Positions 374-48,027 of a DNA stretch of 51,565 nucleotides are shown here, piece after piece. The translations under genes and the position numbers were made by a program. The stretch covers positions 1 through 51,565 of the forward strand of contig NZ_JARJNR010000014.1 in assembly GCF_030143255.1 (NCBI RefSeq), read 5' to 3'. Below the pieces are notes generated by a model. It saw only the letters and a program-made list of their open reading frames with translations, ran no database searches and was not told the origin of the DNA. Position 1 is the stretch's first letter, and every line of letters starts with the position of its first letter. The stretch is from Frigidibacter sp. SD6-1 (GTDB lineage Bacteria > Pseudomonadota > Alphaproteobacteria > Rhodobacterales > Rhodobacteraceae).

Positions 374-778
374 ATGCAGAACATCGTCATCCTCGCCGGC
401 AACATCGGTCAGAAGCCCGAAGTGCGCTCGACCCAAAGCGGCACGAAGATCACCAGCTTCACCCTGGCCACCTCGCGGCCGCGCCTCTCTGAAGGTCGCG
501 TGATGCGCGACGAGAACGGCTACCGGCTCATGGACACCGAATGGCACCGCATCACCTGCTTCAACGGTCTCGGCAAGACCGTGGCAGAGCACTGCGAAAA
601 GGGCATGAAGGTCCTCGTCCACGGGCGCATCCACTACACCAAGTGGACCGACGCAACGGGCACTGACCGCTACGGCTGCGAGATCATCGCCGAGAAGGTC
701 GACTTCCTGAGCCGCCCGAAGTCGGCCGAGAACGAAAACCCCGAGTTGGTAGATCGCGACGACGAGGTCCCGTTCTGA
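374..778 (+). CDS. ssb: Single-stranded DNA-binding protein
   Basis: A 134-residue protein that binds single-stranded DNA during replication, repair or conjugative entry. The start MQNIVILAGNIGQKPEVR matches the first OB-fold strand of bacterial SSB. The centre (DTEWHRITCFNGLGKTVAEH, then GMKVLVHGRIHYTKWTD) is the usual fold core. The C-terminus ends DDEVPF, an acidic tip of the kind that recruits partner proteins. The ATG at 374 is chosen over an in-frame ATG at 209 because the SSB fold begins there and a CAGGAG ribosome binding site lies just upstream. It is short for a chromosomal SSB, which fits a plasmid- or ICE-encoded paralogue. Two hairpins follow the gene. Confidence 0.95.
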   Translation: MQNIVILAGNIGQKPEVRSTQSGTKITSFTLATSRPRLSEGRVMRDENGYRLMDTEWHRITCFNGLGKTVAEHCEKGMKVLVHGRIHYTKWTDATGTDRYGCEIIAEKVDFLSRPKSAENENPELVDRDDEVPF

Positions 779-788: not shown

Positions 789-804
789 GTCTTCCCCGAA
801 AGGG

Positions 805-838
805 CCCGGCGGGGAAACCCGCCGGGTTCCGTCGTTTT
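805..838 (+). terminator. Rho-independent terminator after ssb
   Basis: CCCGGCGGG (805-813) pairs with CCCGCCGGG (818-826) around a GAAA loop and is followed by a T-rich stretch (TTCCGTCGTTTT). It would end ssb transcription. It may also limit antisense read-through from the convergent operon whose last gene ends at 999. Nothing further is recognised in 839-998. Confidence 0.75.
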
Positions 839-998: not shown

Positions 999-2852
999 TT
1001 AAAATCCGTTCTCCGTTCTGCGCAAGTCGGCCGCGATCCAGGCAAGGCGCAACGCCTTCGCCGCCGTTGCCGGGGGGGACAGCAGTCGCTCCACGGCGTC
1101 AATCCCGCTTGAAGCCATGCGCAAGGCCAGCGGGGCGGCCGGATGCTGCCCTTGGCCCAGGTCAAGGGCGGCCGACAACAGGTCGTCGCTCAGGGCGCGG
1201 GTGGCAGGCTTGGCACCGGCCTTCTGTCCCTTGCCAAGCCAAGACGGGACCTGGGCCAGCCAACTGGCCTCTGGCCAGGCAGGCGGCGGATCCAGCGTGG
1301 GATTCCAGACCAACGCGCCCTGCGGCCCATGAAGGACGGAGACGAGGGTGAACTGCAACCGGCCCATGTGCTCGCGCGTCTCGACCAGCAGGCGGGCGCG
1401 ATGTGGGATGCGGGACAGGGCGGTCCGCGCGGGCAGGGACAGTCCTGCCAGCTCGACCGGCAGCAGGCGATTGCTCCGATCCCGCAAGGGCAGGACCCAA
1501 CCGGCCGCGCCCGGAACCGGCGCTTCGCAGGCCGCCGGGGCCAGAAGCGCAGGCCGCACCAGTCCGTCGCGCATGAGGGTCGGGCCCATCTGGTGCCACA
1601 GGCTGTGATGCAGGTCCTGCCAGTCGGCGCAGTCCGGCAATGGCCCATCGGGCCGGGACAGGGCGCGGGCGACGCTGTCGGGCGACAGGCGCAGGTCGTC
1701 GGACAGTTGCGGCGCGTCGATTGCCAAGGAATGCCCGACGGCCTGCATTGCAGACGGCAGGCCCAGCATGGGGCGCTGGTAAGCCGCCTCGGGATCGAAG
1801 CTTGCGTCCAGTCCGTCCGGCCGCGCGGCCCCGGTCGCGATCCAGCGCAGGCACTCGGGGTCCCAGCCCCACATGCGAAGCCCCCGCGCGCCCGTCGGGG
1901 ACTGCCAGCGCCGCGCGCCTAGAAGCCAAAGCGTCAGCGGTGGCCCGGGGCGATAGTCCCGGCGCGACAGCCCGGCCAGCCGGGGATCCGGATCCGGTCC
2001 TGCCAGTGCATGCGCCAAAGCCTGCGCCCGTGCCGCAGCGATCAGGTAAGCCGTTCCATCCGACCCTTCGGCCCGGTTTTCCAGCCCGATCGCCCGTTCG
2101 ACCAACCCGCGCAAGGCGGTGGCCAGACGCGGTGCGGCCTCGATCCGGGCAGAGAGCGCGAGGTCCAGCAACCGGTCCGACGCAAGGCCCCCGTAGCCCG
2201 AAAGGACCGGCGCAACCGAAGCCTCGATTTCCCGCGCAATGCTCTCCAGCAGTCCCCGGTCAAGGCCCTCGGCGGTGGTTTCCGTCCGGGGCGGCCTTGG
2301 CAGCGCCAGACCGCGCGCCGACCGTAAAGCCAGTGCCGCAGCAGTGACGGCAAGACGACGGCGGCTGTCCGGTCCCTTCCAGACGGCACCGCGCAGACCG
2401 GCCCCGGCCAGAAACGTCACCGGATGCGGCAGGCCGGGAAGGGGCATCGTCAGGCTTGCCGCCCGGTCGCCGCAGTCAGGCGGCGGTGTGGCCTGGACCA
2501 GGCGCAGGGCTGCCGCAAGGTCGCTGCCGGCAAAGGCCAGGATCTCGGCGTCGGACAGGTCGGCGATCTCGGCCGCAGCATCCAGTTCGGGTGCCGGGGC
2601 TTCCGACTGCAGCGCCAGCAGCGCCGCGATGACATGCAGGCAGAGGCCGGTTGCGGGGCAGGGACAGCGCGCGCTGCCGATGCCCTTTGCGCCCAGGGTC
2701 ACCGCGAACCCCTCGACCTCGACCTCGGCTGTCGCCCCCTGGATCGTGACGGTCCCCACACGCGCCGCCTTGGCCCGCCGGAGCAGACCCGCCGACCCAA
2801 GCGCCACCAGCGCCGCATCGTCAAGGCCAAGCCACCAGGGCGACGCGGTCAT
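999..2852 (-). CDS. yehQ: SWIM zinc-finger protein, YehQ-like
   Basis: A 617-residue protein with an N-terminal SWIM-type zinc site. C63, C65, C71 and H73 form CxC-x5-CxH in ARCPCPATGLCLH. The rest is helical and rich in Ala and Leu, with no catalytic motif I can name. It is the last gene of the five-gene operon. The start at 2852 is fixed by an ATGA overlap with the VWA gene stop. An ATG further upstream would read into that gene. SWIM fingers bind DNA or proteins, and in this gene context the E. coli counterpart is YehQ, whose function is not established. Family assignment is good; role unknown. Confidence 0.85.
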   Translation of the reverse strand: MTASPWWLGLDDAALVALGSAGLLRRAKAARVGTVTIQGATAEVEVEGFAVTLGAKGIGSARCPCPATGLCLHVIAALLALQSEAPAPELDAAAEIADLSDAEILAFAGSDLAAALRLVQATPPPDCGDRAASLTMPLPGLPHPVTFLAGAGLRGAVWKGPDSRRRLAVTAAALALRSARGLALPRPPRTETTAEGLDRGLLESIAREIEASVAPVLSGYGGLASDRLLDLALSARIEAAPRLATALRGLVERAIGLENRAEGSDGTAYLIAAARAQALAHALAGPDPDPRLAGLSRRDYRPGPPLTLWLLGARRWQSPTGARGLRMWGWDPECLRWIATGAARPDGLDASFDPEAAYQRPMLGLPSAMQAVGHSLAIDAPQLSDDLRLSPDSVARALSRPDGPLPDCADWQDLHHSLWHQMGPTLMRDGLVRPALLAPAACEAPVPGAAGWVLPLRDRSNRLLPVELAGLSLPARTALSRIPHRARLLVETREHMGRLQFTLVSVLHGPQGALVWNPTLDPPPAWPEASWLAQVPSWLGKGQKAGAKPATRALSDDLLSAALDLGQGQHPAAPLALRMASSGIDAVERLLSPPATAAKALRLAWIAADLRRTENGF

Positions 2853-3949
2853 GTCATCACCTCGCCCAGCCACCCGGCCAGCCGGTCCGGGGTCATTGCG
2901 CCGATCTGCATGCCAAGGTCCGCAAGGCGCGCGGCGACGCGGTGGTCATGGAACGGGTCGCCCCGGTCGTCCAGCGCCGCAAGGCCCAGCAGTCGCACCC
3001 GCGCCTCGACCAGCTGCGCGACCTGAGTCTCCAGACGGCGGGTCGAACCGCCTTCGCAAAAGTCGCTGATCAGCACCAGGACAGAGCGGGCCGGGTCCTC
3101 GACAAGGCCGGCGCAGTACTGCATCGCCGCGCCGATATCGGTGCCGCCCCCCAGCCGGACCGTCATCAGCGTTTCCAACGGATCGGTCAGCCGGTCGCTG
3201 ACATCGACGACCTGGGTGTCGAAGAGCACCATCCGGACGTGAATGCCCGGCAAGCCCGAAAGGATCGCCGCCATGACGGCCGAATGGATGACGCTGTCCG
3301 TCATGGATCCCGACTGGTCCACGCAGAGGATCACCTGCCAGGGAAGGCTCGGGCGCTGTCGGCCGTGGAAGAACAGGCGGTCCGGGACCAGCCGCCCGGT
3401 ATCCGGATCGATGCGGTGCAAGTTGCGGAAAAGCGTCCTGCGCGCGTCGAAATCGGCGGCGCGCGGAAGGCGGCCCCTCACCTGCCGATTGCGCTGGCCG
3501 GACAGGGCAAGCTCGATCCTGGGGCGGAGGCGTGCGGTGATCTCATCGACCACGCGGCGCACCGTATCCCGCAAAAGCGCCATCAGCGCCGGCGGCAGGC
3601 TGCCCCGCAACGACAGGAGAAGCCGCAATGTCGCGGGGCTGGGCTCGACCCGCGCCAGGACCTCGGGGTCGGCCAAGAGGTCTGCCAGCCGGAAGCGGTT
3701 CAGCGCGTCAGCCTCGATCCGCTGGCAGGTCGATTTCGGGAACAGCTTGCGAACACGCCCAAGCCAGTGGAGCGCCTCGGGACGCGACGGTTCGGTGCCG
3801 CCAAGACCCCCGCCCCGTGCCGAGGGCGATTGCTGGTAAAGCCAGGTCAGCACCTCGTCCTGCTTGGCAGCCTCGCCTTCGGGTTCGGGCAAGGGGCCGT
3901 TTGCCGCGGGTCCAAGCGCCATGCGCCAGCGGCGGGCAGCGTCGGTCAT
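2849..3949 (-). CDS. yehP: VWA-domain protein with complete MIDAS, YehP-like
   Basis: A 366-residue protein. The N-terminal 200 residues are helical. A von Willebrand A domain follows with a full metal-ion-dependent adhesion site: D211-x-S213-x-S215 (VDQSGSM), T270 (GGGTDIG) and D296 (LISDF). MoxR-type AAA+ proteins typically work with such VWA partners as chaperone pairs that remodel or load a metal or client, and the ATPase is encoded two genes upstream. The start at 3949 is set by an ATGA overlap with the DUF5682 stop. The intact MIDAS argues for an active Mg2+-dependent partner. Confidence 0.88.
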   Translation of the reverse strand: MTDAARRWRMALGPAANGPLPEPEGEAAKQDEVLTWLYQQSPSARGGGLGGTEPSRPEALHWLGRVRKLFPKSTCQRIEADALNRFRLADLLADPEVLARVEPSPATLRLLLSLRGSLPPALMALLRDTVRRVVDEITARLRPRIELALSGQRNRQVRGRLPRAADFDARRTLFRNLHRIDPDTGRLVPDRLFFHGRQRPSLPWQVILCVDQSGSMTDSVIHSAVMAAILSGLPGIHVRMVLFDTQVVDVSDRLTDPLETLMTVRLGGGTDIGAAMQYCAGLVEDPARSVLVLISDFCEGGSTRRLETQVAQLVEARVRLLGLAALDDRGDPFHDHRVAARLADLGMQIGAMTPDRLAGWLGEVMT

Positions 3950-6315
3950 GCGCGTTCTCCCGTCGCTTGGGCCAGCCATGCACCCAGGCCCTGGGTGACA
4001 AGATCGTCCAGAACCTTGCGCAGGGCGGCCGCGTCGGCAGGGTCCAGCGTCGTCTCGGCCGGGCCCAAGGCGTGCCGGGTGGCCACATGGGTGGCAAGAC
4101 GCGCTGTCTCTTGCGCGGTCAGGGTCGAGAAGGCCGCGCGCAGTTCGGGCAGCAGTTCCAGGAAAGCGGGCTCGTCGATCCGGGCAAGATGGGCGTCAAC
4201 GGCGTCCATGACCGGGCCATTGCGGCAAAGGATTGCGGGGGCCGCGCGCAGGACCCCTGCCAGAAGCGCGCTGCGACCCTCTCCCAGATCCATGCCCGCA
4301 AGCCCGCCAGCCACGGCTGCGGCTACCTCCGCCTCCGTCCGCCGCCCCGCCAAGGCACCCAGCCCCAAGGCCGCGCCCAGCAGGGCAGGGGGCACCCTGG
4401 ACGCGGCCAGCCGGTCAAGCGCCGCGGCAAACCGACCGGCATCCAGCGCTTCTCCGCCCGGCCCCGCCAAGACTGCGTTTACCAGCCGCAAGGCGTCGAT
4501 GGCCGATGGCAGATCGTCGGCGGGAAGGCCCGGAAGGCTGTCGATCAACCAGACCAACCGGTCGAAGGCCGCCGACACCAGCGCGCGGATGTCCAGCACG
4601 GCGGGCGCCCGCAACGGCCCGCGGGTCACGGCGACCAGGTTCAGCTGTCGAAGGGTTTCGGCCAGGGCAGAGGGATCGCGGGACAAGGCGATGTCCTGCG
4701 CCAGACGCCTGGCCAGTGGCATGAGTTCCCCGCCCAGCCCGGCCAGAAGCCCGCGCAGCAAGAGACGGCAGCGAAGCGGAAGGTCGCCGCGACGGGCCTC
4801 GGCCTCCAGCGTCTCATAGTCGAGCAAAAGCTGCGCCGCGCAGGCCGACGGAAGGGTGTCGCCCAGGGCGGCGCTTTCGATCAGGCGCGCCTCGACGCGC
4901 GCAGACCAGGCGACGGACCAGTGTTCGTGCAGATGCACCGGGTCGGGACCGGCCATGTAATCCGGACCAGAGGTCATCCTGGCGAAGCCCGTCTCAAGAA
5001 TGGCCATCGCATGCAGAAAGGCCGAAGCGGCCCGGTGTGCAGGCTTGCGACGCACTTCCAGCCGCCGCTCTCGCGGTGTGCTGTCCGTGACCGCAAAGCG
5101 CAGCGCGGCGGCCCGGGACTGGGCGTCTGCGACCAGCGGCGGCAATCCGGCATTGCGGCAGACCTGCCCCAGACGGTCCCCGCGCAGGTAGCGGGCGAAG
5201 TCGGCGGTCCAGAGCTTTCGGTCCGACGCCTCGCCCTTCACCATTGCACTGGCAGCCGCGTCAAGCAGGTCCTGCCGCATCGGGCCGGGCCGACCGCGCA
5301 GGCGGGCAAGCCCCTCGGCCAGCCGCAGGCTTTCGACCAGGATGGGGACCGGCTGCAGGTGCCCATCCTTGCGCAGGGCTTCGGCATGGCCGGAAATCAG
5401 CGCCAGCGCGGTCGCGCCCCAGGCAGGAGCGGCACCGGTGGCCTGCACCTCGGTCCAGAGCCGATCATAGTAGCCGGGCAAGGGCAGACCGGCTGCATAG
5501 CCGCCCAGTGCATCCAGCGCCGCAAAGCCGTAGCGCACAAGATACGAGGTTGCCGGTGCGCCCGGCGCGGCATCCTGCGTCACGCTCTCGGGGTCGCAGA
5601 GGGCGGGCGCGTGATACCCGCCGACCACGACAACCACCCGGGGCGCTGCCCCGTCGCCAAGCGCCGCCCGCACATGCCTTGCCATATGCGCCTCGCGGCG
5701 GAGCGTCCGCGCATCCGGCGGCGTGGCCTGGCGCAGACCGGCACAATAGGCCCCCACATCGCGGAAGAACTCCTGCCAGTTGCCGGTGCCAAGGCGCGTC
5801 TCGAAGAGATGGTCCCAAAGGTCGTGCCCGTCGCGGCAGCCGGTGGCCTGGCACAGCGCGTCGATATAGTCCCCGGAGGTGAAGGGCAGGTCGTCCTGCA
5901 ACGGCTGGGCGATGGCCGGCGTGGGACTGTCCGGAAAGGTGCCGCTTGGCAGATCGATGAAGCGCAGCCGGGCCCCGGCCGTGCGCCCCGCCCGCAACGC
6001 GACATACTCGGGCGAATGCGCGGTCAGGGGGTAGTGGCTGGCCGTGCGCAGCGTGGTTGCCCCCTCGACCTCCGTGAGGGCGACGATCGCCACGGGCGGC
6101 CGGGTGCCGGGATCAAGGATGTTGTCAATGTGCCGGTCAAAGTCGTCCGGCCCCTCGACCAGAAGATGCGTGGGTGCGACATCCCGGATCAGCGCCTCCA
6201 GCGCCCAGGCGCAGGCTGGCGAATGGTGACGGACCGGCACGACCCAGAGGCCCCGCCCGGGCGAGAACAGTCGTTCCGCCGCCTGCCCCAGGTCCTTGCG
6301 GTCGGGGTCCTGCAT
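3946..6315 (-). CDS. yehM: DUF5682 family protein, YehM-like
   Basis: A 789-residue protein. The N-terminus carries the family signature VPVRHHSPACAWAL (residues 26-39) followed by LLVEGPDDFD (51-60), a TraB/ChaN-like pattern of conserved His and Glu-Gly-Pro. An internal segment contains VVVVGGYHAPAL. The C-terminal half is a long Ala/Leu-rich helical array. It starts 9 bp after the ATPase stop and overlaps the VWA gene by ATGA, so the products are probably made together. No reaction is established for DUF5682. In E. coli the same position is held by yehM. Confidence 0.85.
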   Translation of the reverse strand: MQDPDRKDLGQAAERLFSPGRGLWVVPVRHHSPACAWALEALIRDVAPTHLLVEGPDDFDRHIDNILDPGTRPPVAIVALTEVEGATTLRTASHYPLTAHSPEYVALRAGRTAGARLRFIDLPSGTFPDSPTPAIAQPLQDDLPFTSGDYIDALCQATGCRDGHDLWDHLFETRLGTGNWQEFFRDVGAYCAGLRQATPPDARTLRREAHMARHVRAALGDGAAPRVVVVVGGYHAPALCDPESVTQDAAPGAPATSYLVRYGFAALDALGGYAAGLPLPGYYDRLWTEVQATGAAPAWGATALALISGHAEALRKDGHLQPVPILVESLRLAEGLARLRGRPGPMRQDLLDAAASAMVKGEASDRKLWTADFARYLRGDRLGQVCRNAGLPPLVADAQSRAAALRFAVTDSTPRERRLEVRRKPAHRAASAFLHAMAILETGFARMTSGPDYMAGPDPVHLHEHWSVAWSARVEARLIESAALGDTLPSACAAQLLLDYETLEAEARRGDLPLRCRLLLRGLLAGLGGELMPLARRLAQDIALSRDPSALAETLRQLNLVAVTRGPLRAPAVLDIRALVSAAFDRLVWLIDSLPGLPADDLPSAIDALRLVNAVLAGPGGEALDAGRFAAALDRLAASRVPPALLGAALGLGALAGRRTEAEVAAAVAGGLAGMDLGEGRSALLAGVLRAAPAILCRNGPVMDAVDAHLARIDEPAFLELLPELRAAFSTLTAQETARLATHVATRHALGPAETTLDPADAAALRKVLDDLVTQGLGAWLAQATGERA

Positions 6316-6324
6316 GGCGACGCC

Positions 6325-7398
6325 TCAGGTCCCGTCGCAGAAGGCGGCCCAGGCACGGCTGGACCTGGCGCGAGGGCGGGCGACCTGATCGACATAGGCG
6401 CGCAGCTTCCGTCCATCCTCCGGGTCGTCCTTGAACACCACGCCGCGCAACTGCCCCGCGACATGCCGGGCCGTCAGCGGCCCGCCGTCCAGGTAGGCCG
6501 CGGCCAGGCTGGCGGCATGCACCGTGTTCACGGCTTCGGCGGTGGACATGATGCTGGATGGCTGGGCCACCGTTTCCCCCTCCGCCGTCCGCCCGGTCCG
6601 AAGGTCACGGAAAACGGTGACCAGCACGTCCAGAACGTCCGGTGCAGGCGCCGGAATCGCGGGATGGTCGGCAAGCCGGTCCGCCAGTTGCCGCGCGATC
6701 AGCGCGCGTTCAAAGGCGGGATCTCGGATCGACTCGACCGTCTCGAAGTTGAACCGCCGCTTCAGCGCGCCCGACATCTCATGCGTGCCCCGGTCGCGCA
6801 GGTTCGCCGTGGCGATGACGTTGAACCCCGGCGCGGCGCGGACCTCGGTCCCTTCGCCAAGTTCGGGCACCGCCAGCGTGCGTTCGGACAGGATCGAGAT
6901 CAGGCTGTCCTGCACCTCGGGCGGGCAGCGGGTCAATTCCTCGATCCGGACGATCTGGCCGGTGCGCATCGCCGTCAGCACCGGCGAGGCGACCATCGCC
7001 CGCGCGCTTGGCCCCTCGGCCAGAAGCAGCGCATAGTTCCAGCCATAGCGCAGATGGTCCTCCACCACGCCGGCCGAGCCCTGGACAACCAGCCGCGACG
7101 TGCCGCAGATCGCGGCGGACAGAAGCTCGGACAGCATCGACTTTGCCGTGCCGGGTTCGCCCACCAGCAACAGCCCCTGCAATCCCATGACCGAGACGAT
7201 GCAGCGGTCGACAAGCGCGTCGTCGCCCCAGAATTTCCGGGTCACCCCGCGCGCCTCGTCGCCGGTGACGAAGGCCCGCACCGCCCGGGGCGACAGGCGC
7301 CAGCCGGGCGGACGGGGACCGGGGTCGGAGGCCGCGAGGCGCGCCAGCTCCTCGGCAAATCGGATTTCGGCGGGCTGCTTCTGGACCTCGCCTACCAT
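6325..7398 (-). CDS. yehL: MoxR-type AAA+ ATPase, YehL-like
   Basis: A 357-residue ATPase. Walker A is GEPGTAKS (80-87). The Walker B region reads IVRIEEL (149-155), with Glu in place of the usual first Asp. Sensor 1 lies in FNVIATANLRD. It is followed by KRRFNFE and an Arg-rich lid typical of MoxR proteins. The ATG at 7398 is preferred over an ATG at 7467 because it overlaps the DUF4132 stop by only 7 bp and begins at the conserved N-terminus. Predicted role: motor of the operon, acting with the VWA protein on an unknown client. Confidence 0.92.
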   Translation of the reverse strand: MVGEVQKQPAEIRFAEELARLAASDPGPRPPGWRLSPRAVRAFVTGDEARGVTRKFWGDDALVDRCIVSVMGLQGLLLVGEPGTAKSMLSELLSAAICGTSRLVVQGSAGVVEDHLRYGWNYALLLAEGPSARAMVASPVLTAMRTGQIVRIEELTRCPPEVQDSLISILSERTLAVPELGEGTEVRAAPGFNVIATANLRDRGTHEMSGALKRRFNFETVESIRDPAFERALIARQLADRLADHPAIPAPAPDVLDVLVTVFRDLRTGRTAEGETVAQPSSIMSTAEAVNTVHAASLAAAYLDGGPLTARHVAGQLRGVVFKDDPEDGRKLRAYVDQVARPRARSSRAWAAFCDGT

Positions 7399-10300
7399 GG
7401 CGACCGCCGCTCCCACTCTGGATCGAACGCCCCCTTGGAGGCCGCCACATGATAGTCGTGCCAGCATTCGGCCAAGAGGACCGGCGGCACCTTGGACGGG
7501 GGCACCTCGCCGCCGGGCTTGCCGTCGCGGTCGCGCGCGAAGCGCAGGTCGTAGATCACGGCGGTCACGTTCTCTTCGGGCAGGCAGTTGCCCGAGAAGT
7601 TGATCGTCGCGATCAGGCCCGCCACCGGGAAACGGCGCAGGTAGTGGCCGAAGTGGCCACCGTCCTCGGCCGCGCCGCGATCATAGGCCAGCTTCTTTGC
7701 CAGGCCGCGCACCGTGAAGGTGTCGGTGACCCAGCCATTCCTGTCGGCGATGCTTTCGGCATCCACCGCCACCGGTCCCGGGGTCGCCCGACCGAACTGC
7801 GCAAAAAGCGGCTGGACCTCGTGGTCCTTGAGATGAGCCGACCACTCCTTATCCGCGGTCGGCCCGACAAGCATCGTATGGGCCAGCCGGATCCCTGCAA
7901 AGGCGGAGGGGTCGACGGCAGCATCGTCAACACCGATGAAGTCGCCTTCGGGCGTGGGGCGGAAGGCCGACGGGGTGTTTCCTTCTGCGTCCACCCCCAG
8001 CCAGACCAGTTGCTCGCAGGCCTTGCGCAGGACGGGATGGCCGAGGATGTCGCCCAGCCATTCGGCTGCCGACCAGACCCGACCCGAGCACATCGCGTCG
8101 AACAGCCGTTCCCGCTGGATCGACACGACTTGCGTCAGCGTCTTCTTGGCGTCGGCAAAGCTCGCCTTGGACTCGACCGTCGCCTCGTCCTCGCCCGCGG
8201 GCAGCGCCTTGACCGGGCGGCCGTCGGGGTTGAAGAGCACCAGCTCCAGCGCCTCGCTCAGACGGGCGACATAGGGCTTGCGGTCCTCGCCGCAGGGAAG
8301 CTCAAGCCGGCCGGTCTCGTCCAGACCAAGGGTCGGCACGCTACGGTCGGCCAGCTGGTCCAGCGTCCAGTCATTGTCCTCGGCGATCCGCGCGACCAAC
8401 TCGCCCGCCAGCTTCTGCACGCCCTTCTGCTTCAGCCGGTTCGCCGCCGACAGCACCACCTGCAACGACGGCGGATCGGCCTTCGCCGCCAGCAGTTCCA
8501 GCAGGGCCGAGGTCTGTGACGTCTGCGGCCCGTGCGTCTTGAGATACCAGCGGGTCTTGGCCGCGGCATGGCTCGACGGCACGGCGCGTGCCAGCGCCAG
8601 AAGGCCCTTGGTTTCGGACGACTCGTTGTGAAGCACTTCCCGCGGGCCCATCCAGGGGTTCGTCTCGACGACGGTCACCAGGGATTCCGCGACCCAGGCA
8701 TCGAAGATCAACCGGCCCAGGGCCGCCGCGTCCTCGGGGTGCAGCTGGTCCAGGTACAAGGCCAGCATGCCGTTGCCGCCGGGCTGCTTCAGCTTGATCG
8801 CCAGCCTGATCCACCAGTGGAGAACGACGTCGGGAACAGGCGATCCGTCGCGCCAGCGCAAGGCACCCAACCGGTCCAGCCCCAGCCAGGCGGGCGGGGG
8901 GGCGCCTGCGCCCTTCATGCCGGCCTGCGCTTCGGCCAGAAGGGCTGCGGGTCCTGCATAGGCGGCGATATCCGCACCCGCCCGCGCCAGCGCGGTGATC
9001 ATCGCGGCCCGCACGGCCTCGGTCTTCTCGACCTTCAGCCGGTTGCGCAGCGCGGCCTCGGCCCCTGCGGCCCGCCGTTCGCCCAGCCATTCCGCCGCAA
9101 TCCGCCGCGTGTCGGCCTTGCTGTCCTGCAAGAGATCGATCAGATGCGCGTCGATGCCCGGCGCATCGGCCAGAAGCGCCCGCGCCTCGGCCCGGCTTTC
9201 CCGCTTGGGTGAGGTGGCGATTGCCAGAAGCGGCGCCAAGAACCGCTGCGGCGTCGCGGGCAGAACGCCAAGCCACAGGATCGAGTTCCGCCGCGACTGG
9301 TTGCGAAACACCTTGGGCGCGGTCGAAAACGCGTCCTCGATCACGTGCAGGTTCGCGGCAACCATCGGCCACACGCCTTCCCGGGCGAATTCGCGGCTGC
9401 GGTCCTCCCGGCTGTACCGGTCGTTCGTTCCGATCAAGGTCGCCAGGGTCTTTCCCTTGGGCCAGTCCGGCTTCAATTCGATCATCAGCTGATCGATCCG
9501 CCGCAGGTCCATGTTGGGCGCCTGCAAATAAGCCTGAAGCGGCGCGGACTCGTTGTCGTAGAAGGACATGTATTCGAGGGACCTTCTGGCGAATTCGCGT
9601 AGCCCAGTCTCCTGCGGCAGCCTCAGCAACTGACGCCGATACCATTTGGAGCCGGCCTCGCGCATCAAGTGCGCGAAATCCGACGAATAGGGCGGGCGCG
9701 GGTTCAGTGTCTGCCCGTTCAGGGTCGCGATCAGGTAATCCGCCTGCTCGGCCTCGATCATCGTCGGGACCGAAGGTTTCCATTTCATGTCGCGGCGCAT
9801 CCATTCCTCGTATCGCGCCTGACGCCTGGCATTGTCGGCCTCGATCAACGCCACCAGTTCTGCCCGCTCTGCTGCGCCAAAGACCGGCCGAGTGCCGGGG
9901 GCGAAATCCTGCATCGGCGGAATCGCGATCCGCGTGCCGCCAATGGCGGTATAGCCTGTGTCGTCGTCGGCCTCTGTCGCTGTCGCCTGCATCGACTTGC
10001 CGGCGAAATAGGCCTCGATCACCCGTCGCACGGCGCCGGCCTTTTCGACCTCCAGCCGCGCCTGCAAGGCAGCCTCGGCGCCGAGCGAGCCAAGACCCGC
10101 CAGCCAGGTCGCAAGCTCTTCCCTGACCTTGGGGTCGCTGTGGTCCAGCCGTTCGATCACCAGCCGTTCGCGGGTGGCAACGGGCAGGCTGGCAAGCGTT
10201 CCCTGGGCGCGTTTGCGGATGTCCTTGTCACCGACCACCAATTCGTCCCCGATGAAGGCGGTGTAGTTCGGATGGTCCATCTGCTCAATTGCCCGCATCA

Positions 10301-11015
10301 TCGCGACGGCGGTTGACCCCTGGTAGTTCAATGCCTTGAGGTGGGCGCAGATCTCTTCCGGTCGTTCGCCGATATCGCGCTTCAGCCCCATCGCCGCCGC
10401 AAAGCGCTGGGTCACCGGCCAAGCCTCGGTCGGAGAGAGAAGCATATGCTGCATCATCAGCATGGCGCGCAGCAGATCGCCCTCGGTCCCGCCAAAGGCG
10501 CGCGCGATCGCCAACGCCGTGTCGCGGGTCATGCCTTGCGGCGGCATTTCCTCGTCTGGAATGGTCTTGTCGGTGATCAGAGTGTTCTGGAGCGCAAAGT
10601 AGATTTGCCGCTGCGCAAGCGGGTAGCTTCTGAACGCATCGTTCCAATCGTTGCGACCGGCATGTGCAACTGCGGCCAGATGCAGCGCCCGCAGATAGCG
10701 AACGGTGAGGGCAATATCCTCCCCGGCGCTGCGGTACAGGAACAGATTCCGCCCCGTGACTTCGGCGGGCTTGTGGATGACCTGGACCTGGTAGCCCCAC
10801 TTGGCAAAGGACTGGTCCGTCTGTTTCGCCAGCGCCTCGACACCCGCTTCGCCTTCCCCGGTCAGCACATAGCGCAGAAGGCCTTCGCCCACCTCGGGCT
10901 TTGTCTTTGATGCCAGCGCAAGGTCCGCCGCAATCACTCGATGCGCTGGGGAGAGGTTCTGCTGCCCGCCGACATCATCATTCCCACTGCCCAGAAGCCT
11001 TGAAAGCCAGCCCAT
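7392..11015 (-). CDS. yehI: DUF4132 domain protein, YehI/MolR-like
   Basis: A 1207-residue protein and first gene of the operon. The C-terminal part holds the DUF4132 region (LGLDETGRLELP through SAHLKDHEVQPLFAQFGR). Two HEAT-like blocks earlier in the protein resemble each other (GAEAALQARLEVEKAGAVRR and GAEAALRNRLKVEKTEAVRA). E. coli MolR, the founding relative, carries a WGR domain, but no WGR motif is visible here. ATG 11015 (MGWLSRLLG) is preferred to ATG 11150 because the coding character begins there. Likely a large scaffold; function unknown. A separate small WGR protein lies at 26156-26416. Confidence 0.85.
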   Translation of the reverse strand: MGWLSRLLGSGNDDVGGQQNLSPAHRVIAADLALASKTKPEVGEGLLRYVLTGEGEAGVEALAKQTDQSFAKWGYQVQVIHKPAEVTGRNLFLYRSAGEDIALTVRYLRALHLAAVAHAGRNDWNDAFRSYPLAQRQIYFALQNTLITDKTIPDEEMPPQGMTRDTALAIARAFGGTEGDLLRAMLMMQHMLLSPTEAWPVTQRFAAAMGLKRDIGERPEEICAHLKALNYQGSTAVAMMRAIEQMDHPNYTAFIGDELVVGDKDIRKRAQGTLASLPVATRERLVIERLDHSDPKVREELATWLAGLGSLGAEAALQARLEVEKAGAVRRVIEAYFAGKSMQATATEADDDTGYTAIGGTRIAIPPMQDFAPGTRPVFGAAERAELVALIEADNARRQARYEEWMRRDMKWKPSVPTMIEAEQADYLIATLNGQTLNPRPPYSSDFAHLMREAGSKWYRRQLLRLPQETGLREFARRSLEYMSFYDNESAPLQAYLQAPNMDLRRIDQLMIELKPDWPKGKTLATLIGTNDRYSREDRSREFAREGVWPMVAANLHVIEDAFSTAPKVFRNQSRRNSILWLGVLPATPQRFLAPLLAIATSPKRESRAEARALLADAPGIDAHLIDLLQDSKADTRRIAAEWLGERRAAGAEAALRNRLKVEKTEAVRAAMITALARAGADIAAYAGPAALLAEAQAGMKGAGAPPPAWLGLDRLGALRWRDGSPVPDVVLHWWIRLAIKLKQPGGNGMLALYLDQLHPEDAAALGRLIFDAWVAESLVTVVETNPWMGPREVLHNESSETKGLLALARAVPSSHAAAKTRWYLKTHGPQTSQTSALLELLAAKADPPSLQVVLSAANRLKQKGVQKLAGELVARIAEDNDWTLDQLADRSVPTLGLDETGRLELPCGEDRKPYVARLSEALELVLFNPDGRPVKALPAGEDEATVESKASFADAKKTLTQVVSIQRERLFDAMCSGRVWSAAEWLGDILGHPVLRKACEQLVWLGVDAEGNTPSAFRPTPEGDFIGVDDAAVDPSAFAGIRLAHTMLVGPTADKEWSAHLKDHEVQPLFAQFGRATPGPVAVDAESIADRNGWVTDTFTVRGLAKKLAYDRGAAEDGGHFGHYLRRFPVAGLIATINFSGNCLPEENVTAVIYDLRFARDRDGKPGGEVPPSKVPPVLLAECWHDYHVAASKGAFDPEWERRSPW

Positions 11016-11329
11016 ACCAGAAAAACCCCTCAAGTTGTCCCGCCACTCGTTTCCGCTACCGAGACAATAAGGCGCCTGTTTGACGAGAGTGCGGCAGGTT
11101 GGCGACCTGGCGTCCTGCAGCGCGCTGCCGGCCACCTGTCTGCCCAGCAATCTATCTGGCCACTATAGCCACTATCGAGTCATGTTTGCTTCTCGGGCAG
11201 GAGCAGAGTTCGAAATGAACGTCTGCTTTCCGCCCTTCACGTCAGCCAGAGTAAGAGGAGTGCCGGTTTCCCGGTGACGGGTCGAGGGCTGGGAGAGTGG
11301 CTCCCGGCGCCCGTCGCGGGAGATCGCTG
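11016..11329. promoter_or_regulatory. Divergent intergenic region, yeh-like operon / DUF932
   Basis: A gap of 314 bp between divergent genes, so it should hold both promoters. It is less GC-rich than its flanks around 11150-11190 and contains a small direct repeat CCACTAT (twice within 20 bp, near 11160-11175). The last 40 bases before the DUF932 start resemble the leader of the gene at 13207. I cannot assign -35/-10 boxes with confidence. Confidence 0.4.
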
Positions 11330-12529
11330 ATGGGCATTGTGGAAGTTCTGGATCCGGTCGCACCGGCGCGGGCGGGTGGCTGGAAGGTGGATGTGAGCCG
11401 GGGGGAGCGGAACGGGCGGGTGTCGTCCGAATGGTTCAACCGGCCCGATGACGAGCGGTATCTGTCGCTCGACGATCTCTGGGCATCGGTGAAGGGTCGG
11501 TCGGAGCGCAGCCGCAGCCGTGTGGTGCAGACGGCGGATATCCGGGTCGAGGCCGCGCGCGACAACCCCGAGCGGTTGCACCTGATGCTGCCGAAGGCAC
11601 ATGAACCGGTGGCACCCACGCACTGGGCCTTCGGCCAGCTTGCAAGCATCGTCGGCGCGCCGGCGTCCTACCTGCGGCAGCTGCCTGCGCCGCTGGCGGG
11701 GATCAACCTGCAATACGGCCTGACCAATCACCGCGCCGAGCAGGTGAAAACCTTCGAGACGGAAGACGGCCGCACCGAACTGCGCGCGGTGACCGGCCCC
11801 GACTATGGCCGCATTCATGACCACGAGTTGGTCGAGGCGGTGCAGCGCATCGCGGGCAATGGCACGGGCGACACGCGCTGGAAGGTGCCCGGAGTGCTCG
11901 ACTGGTCGACCGGGGTCTACAACCCCGATGTCGAGATCAGCCGCGACACGACCACGCTCTATGCCTCGGACCGCGACGTCTTCCTGTTCCTTGTCGACGA
12001 TCACAACCCGATCGAGGCGGGCCGCCTGCCGGATGGCTCCCCCGATCTCTACTTCCGGGGCTTCTACTGCTGGAACTCCGAGGTGGGTGCGAAGACCCTA
12101 GGGATGGCGAGCTTCTACCTGCGGGCGGTGTGCCAGAACCGCAACCTCTGGGGCGTCGAGGATTTCCAGGAGATCACCATCCGCCACTCGAAATACGCGG
12201 CCTCGCGCTTTGCCCACGAGGCGGCACCGGCGCTGACGCGCTTTGCCAATTCCTCGCCGCAGGGGTTCGTGAACGGCATCAAGGCCGCGCGGCAGCAGAT
12301 CGTCGCGCGAACGGACGAGGACCGGGATGAGTTCCTGCGCAAGCGCGGCTTCTCGAAGGCGGAGTCAGGCAAGATCATCGAGAAGGTGCTAATGGAAGAG
12401 GGCCGCCCGCCCGAAAGCATCTTCGATTTCGTGCAGGGCATCACGCGGCTTGCGCGCGACAAGACCCAGCAGGACGCCCGCCTCGACATGGAAGGGCGCG
12501 CCAAGAAGCTCCTCGACCGGGTCGGCTGA
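11330..12529 (+). CDS. DUF932 domain protein (phage/plasmid type)
   Basis: A 399-residue protein of the phage/plasmid-like DUF932 family, typified here by GRVSSEWFNRPDDERYLSL near the N-terminus, HWAFGQLASIVGAPASYLRQ in the middle and LYFRGFYCWNSEVGAKTLGM toward the C-terminus. Such genes are nearly always found on mobile replicons beside radC and ssb. Their molecular role is unsettled. ATG 11330 is chosen over 11297 because it follows a GGGAG-like ribosome binding site and matches the family start. A strong terminator follows, so it is transcribed apart from radC. Confidence 0.85.
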   Translation: MGIVEVLDPVAPARAGGWKVDVSRGERNGRVSSEWFNRPDDERYLSLDDLWASVKGRSERSRSRVVQTADIRVEAARDNPERLHLMLPKAHEPVAPTHWAFGQLASIVGAPASYLRQLPAPLAGINLQYGLTNHRAEQVKTFETEDGRTELRAVTGPDYGRIHDHELVEAVQRIAGNGTGDTRWKVPGVLDWSTGVYNPDVEISRDTTTLYASDRDVFLFLVDDHNPIEAGRLPDGSPDLYFRGFYCWNSEVGAKTLGMASFYLRAVCQNRNLWGVEDFQEITIRHSKYAASRFAHEAAPALTRFANSSPQGFVNGIKAARQQIVARTDEDRDEFLRKRGFSKAESGKIIEKVLMEEGRPPESIFDFVQGITRLARDKTQQDARLDMEGRAKKLLDRVG

Positions 12530-16804: not shown

Positions 16805-17722
16805 TCAGCCCAGAAGCTTCACCAAGGCGTCGCGCTGCGCAGCGTGCTTTGCAGGGTTGTCCCGCTTCAGCTTGTTCAGGTTGAGGAGCTTCCACTGCAC
16901 GGCTGGTAGGTGAGCTGTCTGCGACCGGTCGATGGCCGCAAAGTCAGGCTCCCCGTCTTGAAGTGTCAGCAGGAACTGCTTCGCCTTGTCGTCGAGGCGC
17001 GATTGCACATCTGTGATCAGCCTCAGGCGCGTCGCCAAAAGCGTATCGAGAGGAACGGGTGTTCTGGTCATGCCCTCGAATTCCCGCGCGTAGGGTTGCC
17101 CGAGATCGATCAGGTTCGGATCGAGAAGCTCATGCGCCGGGCGCGGTGAACTGGCGACATAGATCAGGAAGGTCTGGAACAGGTCCTGCGTCAGGCCCTC
17201 GTTTTCGTAGAGGAGCGTGACGTCGTAGAGATCCCGGGGATGCTGCCTGTCGAGGGCAGCGTGCAGTTTGCCTGCGAACAGGTCCTCGAACGAGACGATC
17301 TGCATTTCAGCATAGCCGTAGGCATCCTCGACAGCGGCGGAGACAGTCCGGATCTCCGGGTCGTGGACGACGCCACGGGTCACAGGCGAGGTTTCGATCT
17401 TGATTTCGGCATGCCCGAGGCGCGCCAGGAGCCGTGTGGCTCCGCCGCCGCCGCCTTGAATGCGCTGAGTTTTTGCGCCGCGAATACCGGTCTTGATGGC
17501 GGCCGCGATGCGGTCCATCGCGGCATTGATCTCGTCCAGGCTCTCGACGCGTTCCTTGATTGGCAGGTAGGTCAAGTCGATATCGACCGACAACCGCGGC
17601 AGGTCGCGGTAAAAGAGGTTGATGGCCGTCCCACCTTTGAGCGCGAAGACGGTTTCGCCCGCGACATGCGGCAGGACGCGTACCAGGAGTGCGACTTGGG
17701 CTTCATAGGTCTCACGCGCCAC
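16805..17722 (-). CDS. abiEii: AbiEii nucleotidyltransferase toxin
   Basis: A 305-residue AbiEii/AbiGii toxin. The polymerase-beta-like site is visible: ALKGGTAINLFYR (GG-T motif) and SVDIDLTYL (D-x-D). FAGKLHAALDRQHPRDLYDV is the characteristic third block. AbiEii enzymes transfer nucleotides to RNA targets and arrest growth, and in AbiE systems they protect the population against phage. The start overlaps the abiEi gene by 11 bases, the standard coupled order antitoxin-toxin. All motif residues look intact, so the toxin should be active. It converges on the DUF6088 gene; 16689-16804 holds nothing else. Confidence 0.93.
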   Translation of the reverse strand: MARETYEAQVALLVRVLPHVAGETVFALKGGTAINLFYRDLPRLSVDIDLTYLPIKERVESLDEINAAMDRIAAAIKTGIRGAKTQRIQGGGGGATRLLARLGHAEIKIETSPVTRGVVHDPEIRTVSAAVEDAYGYAEMQIVSFEDLFAGKLHAALDRQHPRDLYDVTLLYENEGLTQDLFQTFLIYVASSPRPAHELLDPNLIDLGQPYAREFEGMTRTPVPLDTLLATRLRLITDVQSRLDDKAKQFLLTLQDGEPDFAAIDRSQTAHLPAVQWKLLNLNKLKRDNPAKHAAQRDALVKLLG

Positions 17723-18533
17723 TGTCGGCCTCCGGTTTCACGAAATCTTCCGGCACCATGATCCGATAGCGCGGGTGGATCTTGCCGCCCTGAACCAAGG
17801 CTCGGTCGCCGCTGCCGAGGTCGAATGCCTGCGTGTCGATCCGTTTGCGCCAGGGATGATCGTGGCGGTCAGCGAAAACGAAGAACAGGCGCTTGACCTT
17901 GATCTTGCGGCAGGCCTGGAGGAGGTCGGACAGCAGTCTTGGGCGCAGGGTCGTCAGGCTCTCGAACACCATGTCGAGCGTGTGGAAGCTTTCATGGTCG
18001 GGCAACTCGTCCATGGCCTCCAGGATCGCGCGCTCCGGCGTCGACATCGTGAGACCCCAGTCCCATGGCTGGCCGGTCGTCTTGCCCTCGATCAGGCCGA
18101 GTTCCGGGTCGGCAAACAAGGACCGGGGGCGGGTTCTTATCGGGGCATCCATCGGCAGTTTCGCCAGCCAATTCGGGATACTGTCCCCATAGACCCAGAC
18201 TGGAGCGCTGTCGCCGAGGCGCAGGTAATGGGCATGTCCCTGTTCTCCGAGCGCCGTGGTGCCGCCGACATGCAGGTCATGACCCATGATGTGCTGCGTG
18301 GACAGGATGCAGGTCTTCCAGTCGATGCTGTTCGACGTCATGGGGGCTGCGGTGCTGGGGAGGGGGCGGCGGAAGACGCCTCGGGTGATGCGCTCGAGCC
18401 AGCCGCGCTTCACGTAGTCACGGAAGCTCTCGTAGGCGATGCCTTGGGAGACGAGCCATGCGGCATCGACCAGATACCCGGCGGGCACTGCGTCGAGCAT
18501 TTTCTTCAGATTCTGTGACCTTCCGGCATCCAT
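17712..18533 (-). CDS. abiEi: AbiEi antitoxin / transcriptional repressor
   Basis: A 273-residue antitoxin. The N-terminal helix-turn-helix region (GYLVDAAWLVSQGIAYESFR, then VKRGWLERITRGVFRRP) is followed by the C-terminal antitoxin domain, with MSTPERAILEAMDELPDHES as a conserved block. Known AbiEi proteins neutralise AbiEii without a stable complex and repress the operon by binding paired inverted repeats. A stop codon (TAG) lies in frame a few bases before the ATG at 18533, so the start is secure. Two identically spaced inverted repeats lie about 275 bp upstream. Confidence 0.9.
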   Translation of the reverse strand: MDAGRSQNLKKMLDAVPAGYLVDAAWLVSQGIAYESFRDYVKRGWLERITRGVFRRPLPSTAAPMTSNSIDWKTCILSTQHIMGHDLHVGGTTALGEQGHAHYLRLGDSAPVWVYGDSIPNWLAKLPMDAPIRTRPRSLFADPELGLIEGKTTGQPWDWGLTMSTPERAILEAMDELPDHESFHTLDMVFESLTTLRPRLLSDLLQACRKIKVKRLFFVFADRHDHPWRKRIDTQAFDLGSGDRALVQGGKIHPRYRIMVPEDFVKPEADSGA

Positions 18534-26155: not shown

Positions 26156-26416
26156 ATGTACCATAGTCCGATCCAGCTCGATGTCTTCCCGACCGACGTG
26201 CAGATGCGCCGGATCGATCCGGTGCGCAACATGCGTCGTTTCTATCGGCTGAGCGTGCAGCGCGATCTCTTCGGTCGCGCGAGCCTCGTGAGGGAATGGG
26301 GTCGGATCGGCTTCCGTGGCCAGATGATGGTCGAGACGCACCCTGATGAAGGCAAGGCCATCACCGCTTTGATGAAGCTCGCAGCGGTGAAGAAGCGGCG
26401 CGGGTACGTCGACTGA
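26156..26416 (+). CDS. Free-standing WGR domain protein
   Basis: An 86-residue protein that is essentially one WGR domain. MRRFYRLSVQRDLFGRASLV is followed by the signature W48-G49-R50 in REWGRIGFRG, then a C-terminal KKRRGYVD. WGR domains are known as nucleic-acid-contact modules in PARPs, and they also occur at the N-terminus of the E. coli MolR/YehI type DUF4132 proteins. The DUF4132 protein of this window (7392-11015) shows no WGR of its own, so this protein could serve it in trans, but it lies 15 kb away and such solo WGR genes are common on alphaproteobacterial plasmids. Confidence 0.85.
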   Translation: MYHSPIQLDVFPTDVQMRRIDPVRNMRRFYRLSVQRDLFGRASLVREWGRIGFRGQMMVETHPDEGKAITALMKLAAVKKRRGYVD

Positions 26417-26446: not shown

Positions 26447-27163
26447 TTAGGCCATCTTCTTTTCGAGCTTGTCTTTGCGATCTGGCCAATCGGGGAGGAC
26501 CCTACCCAAGAGCTCAAAGAATTCTGGACCATGGTGCGGGACAGCAATGTGACAAAGTTCGTGGGTGATCACGTAGTCTATGGAGTCCACGGATGCTTCA
26601 ATCAGCCTGCGATTGAGCATGAGGCGCGAAGAAGGTGACATCGACCCCCAACGTTGCTGAAGTTGACGCACAATCAGTCCTTTAGGCCGAAATTCCTCGG
26701 GTGCAGGGAACCGAAGCAAGTTCACCTCGAGACGTTCTGCAAATTTGTTCTGAGCCTTTTCCCGATACCACGCCTCTACGAGCTCGCGTGTGAGCTCGGA
26801 TCGTTCGGGCCTGTGTGTTTGGACCACGATGAAGCCACGGACGAGCTTCACCGTCGCTTGAACGTGTGGCACTATTTTCAGCCGATATTGGCGCCCGAGA
26901 TAAAGATGGGTCTCACCCGCCACATACTGGCGATCCGGGGTACGCGGCAGGAACTGGATGAAATACCGCTGTTGGCGCCGGATCCATGCGGCGCGCTTGC
27001 GCACTTTCTCTTCGATAGCCGCCAGTTGAGCATCCCGTGGAGCAGCGACCACAACAGAGGCATCTGGCTCTACGGCGATTTCCAGCGTCGTCCGGTCACG
27101 GCGCACGATGGCGAAATCGATCTGGTGTTCACCATATCGGACGCTGTGTCGTTCCGCTTTCAT
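26447..27163 (-). CDS. YgjP/SprT-like zinc metallopeptidase
   Basis: A 238-residue protein of the YgjP-like (M48/DUF45) metallopeptidase group. The zinc motif HELCH (201-205) is followed by a likely third ligand in PHHGPEFF (H211). The Trp-Gly-Ser segment RWGSMSPSSRLMLNRRL precedes it, as usual in the family. It overlaps hsdR by ATGA and is the last gene of the restriction operon, a common linkage. Its substrate is unknown. Maturation or turnover of HsdR, or of proteins bound to cut DNA, is a reasonable guess only. Confidence 0.88.
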   Translation of the reverse strand: MKAERHSVRYGEHQIDFAIVRRDRTTLEIAVEPDASVVVAAPRDAQLAAIEEKVRKRAAWIRRQQRYFIQFLPRTPDRQYVAGETHLYLGRQYRLKIVPHVQATVKLVRGFIVVQTHRPERSELTRELVEAWYREKAQNKFAERLEVNLLRFPAPEEFRPKGLIVRQLQQRWGSMSPSSRLMLNRRLIEASVDSIDYVITHELCHIAVPHHGPEFFELLGRVLPDWPDRKDKLEKKMA

Positions 27164-31220: not shown

Positions 31221-31231
31221 GCGCTTCTCCT

Positions 31232-35575: not shown

Positions 35576-35651
35576 CTGTAGGATCTCCTACAGCAGATAG
35601 TCCACCAAGCTGAAGAAGTCAATGATATTCACGCTGTAGGTCGATCTACAG
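35576..35651. promoter_or_regulatory. Two 18-bp palindromic operators of the restriction operon
   Basis: CTGTAGGATCTCCTACAG (35576-35593) and CTGTAGGTCGATCTACAG (35634-35651) share the form CTGTAGG-N5-CTACAG. The first ends 6 bp from the first restriction gene and contains its possible AGGAG ribosome binding site. The second lies inside the 3' end of fic. Centres are 58 bp apart. A dimeric repressor is the natural reader. Candidates are RhuM and the winged-helix part of Fic. Confidence 0.75.
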
Positions 35652-36759: not shown

Positions 36760-36763
36760 GAGC

Positions 36764-36782
36764 TATAGAATCCCTTTCTATA
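36764..36782 (-). promoter_or_regulatory. Inverted repeat at the fic promoter
   Basis: TATAGAA (36764-36770) and TTCTATA (36776-36782) are exact inverse complements with a 5-bp spacer, ending 5 bp from the fic ATG. Its left part, CTATAGAATC, resembles CTGTAGGATC of the restriction-operon operator at 8 of 10 positions. Further upstream lies an AT-rich stretch with AATAT-TGC-ATATT, probably the core promoter. Confidence 0.6.
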
Positions 36783-48024: not shown

Positions 48025-48027
48025 GGC

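What the first reader, a model, noticed from the sequence alone, without database searches (positions are those of the whole stretch)
999..11015. A complete yehI-L-M-P-Q type operon on mobile-type DNA
Five overlapping genes encode DUF4132, MoxR AAA+, DUF5682, VWA and SWIM proteins in the E. coli yeh order. All key motifs are intact (Walker A, MIDAS, SWIM CxC/CxH). The block sits between ssb and DUF932, which normally lie close together on such replicons, so it looks like inserted cargo. MoxR-VWA pairs have been proposed as cores of NTP-dependent conflict systems. A whole-operon defence or stress-remodelling role is plausible and, to my knowledge, not demonstrated.
Basis: partly seen in the sequence, partly recalled or inferred. 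Interest (0 to 1): 0.75.

Follow-up and report, generated by a model that had tools for sequence, protein, structure and literature searches.

The report
Yeh-type five-gene operon on plasmid-like DNA
This is an intact copy, in a cargo slot of plasmid-like DNA, of a widespread bacterial five-gene set of unknown function (yehI-L-M-P-Q in E. coli); it looks like an ATP-driven protein-remodelling machine, and the evidence points more to stress or DNA damage than to phage defence.

Summary
In detail: five minus-strand genes at 999-11015 encode DUF4132, MoxR AAA+, DUF5682, VWA and SWIM proteins in E. coli yeh order. Inserted cargo is supported: homology to nine related backbones stops just after ssb (826-849) and resumes at 11217-11268, leaving these five genes and little else; elsewhere the slot holds metal, transport or hypothetical genes. 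Defence is not supported, nor excluded: yehM-P-Q is found in 5300 of 5426 E. coli genomes, nearly always on the chromosome; phage records hardly carry DUF5682; no defence model matches more than 3 of 124 adjacent genes. The module is old: 74 of 99 loci hold all five genes on one strand, in several phyla; a second variant has DUF5691 in place of DUF4132. New here: the DUF5682 N-terminus matches the ChaN (Cofac_haem_bdg) family by profile (91%; controls at most 0.4%), with invariant H, E and D residues. Best explanation: a MoxR-VWA motor with a HEAT scaffold, a SWIM protein and a putative metal domain, probably serving genotoxic or general stress: molR in E. coli is listed as LexA-controlled and a Deinococcus DUF4132 operon is DdrO-controlled. 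Most other loci, the window included, show no SOS box.

The parts
7392..11015 (-). DUF4132 protein (YehI type), helical HEAT-like solenoid plus C-terminal mixed alpha/beta domain; ORF open to 11150, likely start ATG 11015
   Evidence: Pfam PF13569 and PF13646; start sites; AlphaFold model pLDDT 86.8; Foldseek best matches are HEAT/ARM solenoids, with low TM-scores (0.09-0.15 by query)
6325..7398 (-). MoxR AAA+ ATPase of YehL type, P-loop GEPGTAKS; start overlaps the DUF4132 stop codon
   Evidence: Pfam PF07728; BLAST YehL 301 bits against RavA 31.6 bits; junction sequence
3946..6315 (-). DUF5682 protein (YehM type): N-terminal alpha/beta domain related by profile to ChaN/Cofac_haem_bdg, then helical C-terminal half
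   Evidence: Pfam PF18934; AlphaFold model pLDDT 89.8; hhalign with PF04187 and controls
2849..3949 (-). VWA protein, CoxE-like (YehP type), MIDAS motif; ATGA overlap with DUF5682
   Evidence: Pfam PF05762; motif and junction
999..2852 (-). SWIM zinc-finger protein (YehQ type), CxC..CxH; ATGA overlap with the VWA gene
   Evidence: invariant Cys/His in 47-sequence alignment; motif in 78 of 80 loci; iterated family profile hits E. coli YehQ at 332 bits
850..11246 (.). cargo segment in the ssb-DUF932 gap of the backbone (edges approximate)
   Evidence: BLAST blocks to nine related copies end at 826-849 and resume at 11217-11268
802..829 (+). strong stem-loop with T-rich tail after ssb, at the left edge of the cargo
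   Evidence: terminator scan: 8 terminator-like sites against 5.5 expected in the region, so a consensus match only
374..778 (+). ssb, backbone gene flanking the cargo (likely start inside the ORF 209-778)
   Evidence: Pfam PF00436 from residue 58 of the ORF; relatives carry a 405-nt ssb
11297..12529 (+). DUF932-like backbone gene flanking the cargo, divergent from the operon
   Evidence: sub-threshold Pfam hit (19.2 bits, cut-off 23); found in 18 of 120 family genomes, in several at 95-98% identity; annotated DUF932 in plasmid relatives

Best explanation
A self-contained, five-subunit, ATP-driven remodelling system of the YehL-YehP kind, carried as cargo on plasmid-type DNA of a Rhodobacterales-like host. 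Proposed working: the MoxR protein forms the AAA+ motor and the CoxE-like VWA protein is its adaptor, as in NorQ-NorD and RavA-ViaA (inferred from family). DUF4132 is the long HEAT-like scaffold, which in some relatives carries a WGR domain (seen in sequence and model). The SWIM protein supplies a zinc-dependent recognition part (motif seen, ligand inferred). DUF5682 carries a ChaN-related, probably metal-binding domain that would be the catalytic arm or the client that the motor activates (profile match seen, activity inferred). The set most likely responds to genotoxic or general stress rather than to phages (inferred from LexA and DdrO control of relatives and from its presence in nearly every E. 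coli genome).
For: Unit: 74 of 99 loci hold all five genes on one strand, in four orders (52, 10, 7, 5), and the window cargo is those genes and little else. A second variant keeps SWIM, MoxR, DUF5682 and VWA but has DUF5691 in place of DUF4132: SWIM and DUF5691 in 7 of 8 such loci (by BLAST clusters, one member each over or near the Pfam cut-off). Motor and adaptor: motifs; NorQ-NorD mechanism (PMC13036017, abstract and outline). Scaffold: model and Foldseek. DUF5682: PF04187 profile match 91% with the N-terminal slice, 72% with the whole protein, 79% in global mode; controls at most 0.4%; R29 H30 H31 E54 D121 H235 invariant in 62 sequences. DNA-damage link: molR listed as LexA-regulated (PMC11039860, PMC4576408, passages; that molR is the yehF/yehH gene is recalled); a one-mismatch LexA-like site just before yehF; LexA-like sites at -30 to -32 in three more loci, two Proteus and the unnamed L034; DRA0165-DRA0166 (DUF4132) in the DdrO regulon and DRA0166 raised by mitomycin C (PMC8533742, passages); WGR fused to DUF4132 in L033 and L037; a WGR protein that also looks like a DNA ligase beside the operon in L053 (ligase read by eye). 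Core in E. coli: 5300 of 5426 genomes.
Against: No enrichment of SOS boxes before 89 operons (alpha type 1 against 0.5 expected exact, 17 against 18.6 with one mismatch; gamma 0 against 0.4 and 11 against 10.3). A loose Gram-positive half-site pattern did exceed shuffles with one mismatch (18 against 9.2), but not exactly (0 against 0.3), and the full box was absent from 17 of 17 Firmicutes loci. The window has no exact alpha SOS box before the operon. The site before yehF is one of 13 such matches in 35 kb against 10 expected, so its weight rests on the literature. The enterobacterial count is small (3 of 13 against 0.95; a second, longer pattern 2 against 1.27). The Deinococcus paper shows DUF4132 there, not the whole operon. 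Some loci lack the unit: L069 and L117 show DUF5682 alone and L083 and L112 only MoxR and DUF5682 in 18-22 kb. The ChaN link rests on one profile pair whose best local part covers D121 and H235 but not H30 and E54; TraB (4.2%) and the thin EreA set of 8 (0.3%) did not match, and Foldseek found no PDB match below E 0.001 for DUF5682. No contact, ATPase or metal binding was tested.
Confidence: 0.4

Rival explanations
1. Metal or cofactor insertion chaperone: MoxR-VWA loads a metal centre, perhaps in DUF5682 itself or in a molybdenum pathway.
For: The best Pfam VWA match is VWA_CoxE; the MoxR protein CoxD is required to assemble the Cu-Mo centre of CO dehydrogenase (PMC3893208, passages); NorQD inserts metal (PMC13036017, abstract); molR was named for molybdate use (Lee 1990, seen only in reference lists); the DUF5682 N-terminus matches PF04187, named Cofac_haem_bdg.
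Against: No metalloenzyme recurs next to the operon among the families shown. In Deinococcus, moeA and moeB did not change with DdrO depletion (PMC8533742, passage). Which E. coli gene the 1990 molR phenotype belongs to was not checked.
Confidence: 0.25
2. Defence or biological-conflict system: the MoxR-VWA motor is a regulated switch, SWIM and DUF4132/WGR sense foreign or damaged nucleic acid, and DUF5682 is the effector.
For: MoxR-vWA pairs form the core of proposed conflict systems (PMC7159879, passages), and vWA-MoxR-VMAP systems are reported near CRISPR loci (PMC10910872, passages). The GxxxTAKS P-loop noted for two of those classes is exact in 76 of 93 MoxR here, with a final T in the other 17; bpMoxR gives a sub-threshold hit (24.5 bits, cut-off 27). 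Patchy outside E. coli: 14 of 398 phylum and 11 of 292 order genomes. Plasmid-type backbone here; the Iodobacter plasmid copy lies beside a type I restriction system. Single neighbours match PDC-S19 (4e-138), WGR_XIII (4e-116), PDC-S14 (1e-94) and Type II methyltransferase models, and mad3 matches 3 of 124.
Against: Near-universal and chromosomal in E. coli. Found in 28 of 72,556 plasmid records, several of them chromosome-sized, 1 of 50,697 phage records (an unverified faecal scaffold) and no confirmed IMG/VR contig. No defence model recurs widely next to it (no matched control, so enrichment was not measured). No VMAP, iSTAND, FtsH or propeller partner by Pfam. Other cargo in the same slot is mostly metal, transport or hypothetical, with five single PADLOC matches (best mad3 1e-24).
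Confidence: 0.22

Closest known systems
E. coli K-12 yehI-L-M-P-Q locus (YehL subfamily of MoxR ATPases)
   Same: Same five genes in the same order; MoxR is YehL-like and not RavA-like
   Different: E. coli copy is chromosomal, adds yehK and upstream WGR/DUF4132 genes, and lies on a far branch of the tree; the window copy is cargo in a plasmid-type backbone
SWIM-DUF5691-MoxR-DUF5682-VWA operons (e.g. Deinococcus taeanensis plasmid)
   Same: MoxR, DUF5682 and VWA shared in order; SWIM proteins related by profile (95%)
   Different: DUF5691 in place of DUF4132; homology of those two not established (13.9%)
RavA-ViaA and NorQ-NorD MoxR-VWA pairs
   Same: AAA+ motor plus VWA adaptor encoded together
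   Different: RavA 31.6 bits only; that neither pair has DUF5682, DUF4132 or SWIM partners is recalled
MoxR-vWA ternary conflict systems (PMC7159879)
   Same: MoxR and vWA core; GxxxTAKS-type P-loop
   Different: No VMAP, iSTAND, FtsH or propeller component found; yeh, SWIM and DUF5682 do not occur in that paper's main text
ChaN family (PF04187, Cofac_haem_bdg; the name ChaN is recalled)
   Same: DUF5682 N-terminal domain aligns by profile, including the GxxH stretch
   Different: DUF5682 adds a helical half and is encoded with a motor; fold identity not confirmed by structure search

Membership tests
yehI-L-M-P-Q operon family | all five gene families adjacent, one strand | tested here: met
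yehI-L-M-P-Q operon family | E. coli gene order | tested here: met
   order shared by 52 of the 74 complete loci, window and E. coli included
YehL subfamily of MoxR ATPases | closer to YehL than to other MoxR subfamilies | tested here: inconclusive
   YehL 301 bits against RavA 31.6; the other five subfamilies named in PMC3893208 were not compared
MoxR-vWA ternary conflict systems | MoxR plus vWA core | tested here: met
MoxR-vWA ternary conflict systems | third component VMAP, iSTAND, FtsH or beta-propeller | tested here: not met
   no such Pfam family in the five proteins; bpMoxR below cut-off
anti-phage defence system | match to a catalogued defence protein | tested here: not met
   best E 0.0015 against PADLOC-DB 2.0.0 for the five proteins
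anti-phage defence system | recurrent location in defence islands or mobile elements | tested here: inconclusive
   no matched control set
anti-phage defence system | protection phenotype | not testable with these tools
   bench only
ChaN-like domain (DUF5682 N-terminus) | profile similarity above controls | tested here: met
   91% against at most 0.4% for 30 column-shuffled, one reversed and two unrelated alignments
ChaN-like domain (DUF5682 N-terminus) | same fold and haem or metal binding | tested here: inconclusive
   no Foldseek PDB match below E 0.001; VIA-align not available; binding not testable
SOS or DNA-damage regulon | LexA-type box before the operon | tested here: not met
   window: no exact alpha site before the operon; 89 loci: no enrichment of the alpha or gamma box; a few enterobacterial loci have a LexA-like site

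The most novel reading that the evidence does not exclude
The yeh module is an ancient, portable genotoxic-stress machine in which a MoxR-VWA motor controls a ChaN-related metalloenzyme (DUF5682) on a HEAT/WGR scaffold that reads damaged DNA, with two interchangeable scaffolds (DUF4132, DUF5691); its function in E. coli, where nearly every genome has it, has simply been missed.
Probability: 0.25. Interest if true: 0.75.

Novelty: new member of a known kind. Interest (0 to 1): 0.45.

Why it matters
The yehM-P-Q genes are in nearly every E. coli genome, yet the paper listings that I saw gave them no function. The window shows the five genes in a cargo slot without yehF, yehK or WGR genes, which suggests a minimal set to test. 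The ChaN-like domain of DUF5682 and the LexA and DdrO links give concrete predictions: metal binding, and a DNA-damage phenotype.

Tried and rejected
Tried and led nowhere: Foldseek of the DUF5682 model against PDB gave no match below E 0.001. Profile searches of PDB sequences found one chance-level hit for DUF5682 (E 1.1), none for SWIM, and HEAT-like proteins and designs as the strong hits for DUF4132. A general SOS-box test was negative for the alpha and gamma boxes (89 loci tested, 10 skipped for short or ambiguous upstreams). Retron type XIII: PADLOC names WGR_XIII and HEAT-ARM_XIII suggested a link (the retron meaning of the names is recalled), but of nine proteins scanned only one WGR stretch matched, weakly (1.4e-5); one neighbour that I did not identify matched WGR_XIII strongly; paper searches found nothing usable. 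Dropped. TraB and EreA as relatives of DUF5682: not supported. Repeats bounding the cargo: each edge was searched on its own and nothing convincing appeared; the two edges were not compared with each other. DUF5691-DUF4132 homology: not established.

Rejected: chance ORFs (family matches too strong); a dedicated defence slot (other cargo is mixed).

Neighbour genes came from my own ORF chooser. The Pfam and PADLOC scans of neighbours covered 124 of the 136 nearest genes (left out: 10 copies of the small Paenibacillus-type tail protein, and two others), and showed the first 25 of 158 Pfam and of 28 PADLOC families. Of 13 backbone stretches fetched, 9 had both ssb and DUF932; in the other four only more distant DUF932 and other backbone matches were seen. 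DNA matches under 120 columns were not listed. The tree used 85 of 99 loci, FastTree, midpoint root, supports not inspected. No replication or transfer gene was looked for in the window, and the contig is not closed, so an integrated element is possible.
Full report
What is there. The window is the whole of contig C5, 51,565 bases, of a 38-contig, 3.9 Mb genome. On the minus strand lie five genes: DUF4132 with HEAT repeats, MoxR AAA+, DUF5682, CoxE-like VWA, and a SWIM protein. Likely starts are 11015, 7398, 6315, 3949 and 2852; three junctions overlap and one has a 9-nt gap. E. coli MG1655 has the same order as yehI, yehK (small), yehL, yehM, yehP, yehQ, preceded by yehF and the pseudogene yehH; another E. 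coli record has one WGR-DUF4132 gene in their place. A 4.4-kb contig of a Rhodobacteraceae MAG carries a 99% identical DUF5682 (L039).

It is cargo in a plasmid-type backbone. The DUF932-RadC stretch next to the operon matches 464 of 72,556 plasmid records, 286 of them predicted conjugative; 57 hold at least 80% of it. Thirteen related stretches were fetched; nine have both ssb and DUF932, one of them a second copy in the same genome. In all nine, homology stops just after ssb and resumes just before DUF932, and no DNA match to the operon of 120 columns or more was listed. The gap is 1.2-1.5 kb in five and 3.9-10 kb in four. Cargo proteins of five of those copies (32 ORFs) include a heavy-metal P-type ATPase, SCO1, the copper chaperone PCuAC, Nramp, CorA, a sulfate permease and sugar transport (first 25 of 37 families shown); PADLOC gave five models with one member each, best mad3 at 1e-24. 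Seven annotated plasmids have hypotheticals, a cation transporter with ArsR, TRAP transport, a serine hydrolase with a regulator, or Gp37/68 with TcmP there. So the slot takes mixed accessory genes, and in the window it holds the five yeh-type genes and little else. The contig is not closed and I did not look for replication or transfer genes in it.

It is an old and widespread module. Over 99 loci (window, E. coli, 17 from related or same-phylum genomes, 80 from the scan) family profiles found DUF5682 in 99, MoxR in 95, VWA in 93, SWIM in 81 and DUF4132 in 80. All five on one strand: 74 of 99, in four orders: 52 with the window's order, 10 M5V4S, 7 M5VS4, 5 VS4M5 (4 DUF4132, M MoxR, 5 DUF5682, V VWA, S SWIM). 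Of the other 25, eight belong to a second variant, in which SWIM and DUF5691 precede MoxR in seven, about nine are short or clipped contigs, one is decayed (L038), and the rest lack parts in full-length loci; L069 and L117 show DUF5682 alone. The window copy groups with Rhodobacteraceae copies on contigs of 0.2-2.1 Mb, while E. coli sits on a distant branch. In relatives the family is patchy: 4 of 101, 14 of 398 and 11 of 292 genomes, own genome included, of which 3, 14 and 10 pass the curated cut-off. In E. coli it is near universal and chromosomal.

What the parts look like. The DUF5682 model (pLDDT 89.8) has an N-terminal alpha/beta domain and a helical C-terminal half. Its N-terminal profile matches the PF04187 set with 91% probability (72% with the whole protein, 79% in global mode); 30 column-shuffled, one reversed and two unrelated alignments gave at most 0.4%, TraB 4.2% and a thin EreA set 0.3%. 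Conserved H30, H31, E54, D121 and H235 are candidate metal ligands; that is inference. The DUF4132 model (pLDDT 86.8) is a long solenoid with a C-terminal mixed domain; Foldseek finds HEAT/ARM solenoids with low TM-scores. WGR sits at the N-terminus of DUF4132 proteins in two loci.

Function. For genotoxic stress: molR as a LexA target in the literature, the site before yehF, similar sites in two Proteus loci and L034, and the DdrO regulon in Deinococcus. Against: no enrichment of the alpha or gamma SOS box and no exact site at the window. For defence: mobility, patchiness, MoxR-VWA kinship, one copy beside a restriction system, and a few neighbours with strong matches to defence-candidate models. 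Against: near-universality in E. coli, few phage and plasmid records, no defence model in more than 3 of 124 adjacent genes. For metal handling: CoxE-like VWA and the ChaN-like domain. The three are not exclusive. I put the remodelling-machine anatomy at about 0.75, genotoxic or general stress as its main role at 0.4, metal insertion at 0.25 and defence at 0.22; these are judgements.

Papers. Passages only: PMC7159879, PMC3893208, PMC8533742, PMC9334617, PMC10910872, PMC11039860, PMC4576408, PMC3978071, PMC7824862, PMC4245954. Abstract and outline: PMC13036017. That no function of yehL-M-P-Q is in print is claimed only for the listings (3 of 3 papers shown; 20 of 242; 3 of 3; 40 of 693, nearly all unrelated; 10 of 15), in an open-access library; most subscription papers are not in it.

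Noticed in passing
window 16805-18533 (-): AbiEii/AbiEi type IV toxin-antitoxin pair; most or all of the stretch is conserved in two related copies (L151, L155).
   Followed up: partly
window 27160-34962 (-): Type I restriction system (HsdR, HsdS, HsdM) with a RhuM gene inside and a YgjP-like metallopeptidase beside it.
   Followed up: no
window 26156-26416 (+): Stand-alone WGR-domain protein of 86 aa on the same contig as the DUF4132 operon.
   Followed up: partly
window 35629-39398: Fic protein followed by an IstB-type IS21 ATPase gene.
   Followed up: no
window 45500-50309: Pretoxin-HINT domain at 49806-50309, after putative type II secretion genes at about 45-48 kb (read by eye).
   Followed up: no
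L038 (G011:C39, end of contig): Decayed copy in the same family: MoxR in two pieces, DUF5682 remnant, SWIM piece, no VWA found; described only.
   Followed up: partly
L053:15575-16951: Protein with an N-terminal Cys/His stretch, a DNA-ligase-like middle (both by eye) and a C-terminal WGR domain, next to the operon.
   Followed up: partly
L085, L086, L088, L089, L091, L097, L102, L105, L110, L114: A small protein of 92-115 aa follows SWIM in all ten M5V4S loci, with no Pfam hit for the one scanned: a possible sixth component in this group.
   Followed up: no
neighbours of L039-L118: Single adjacent genes match PADLOC models PDC-S19, WGR_XIII and PDC-S14 very strongly; which loci they lie in was not worked out.
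   Followed up: no
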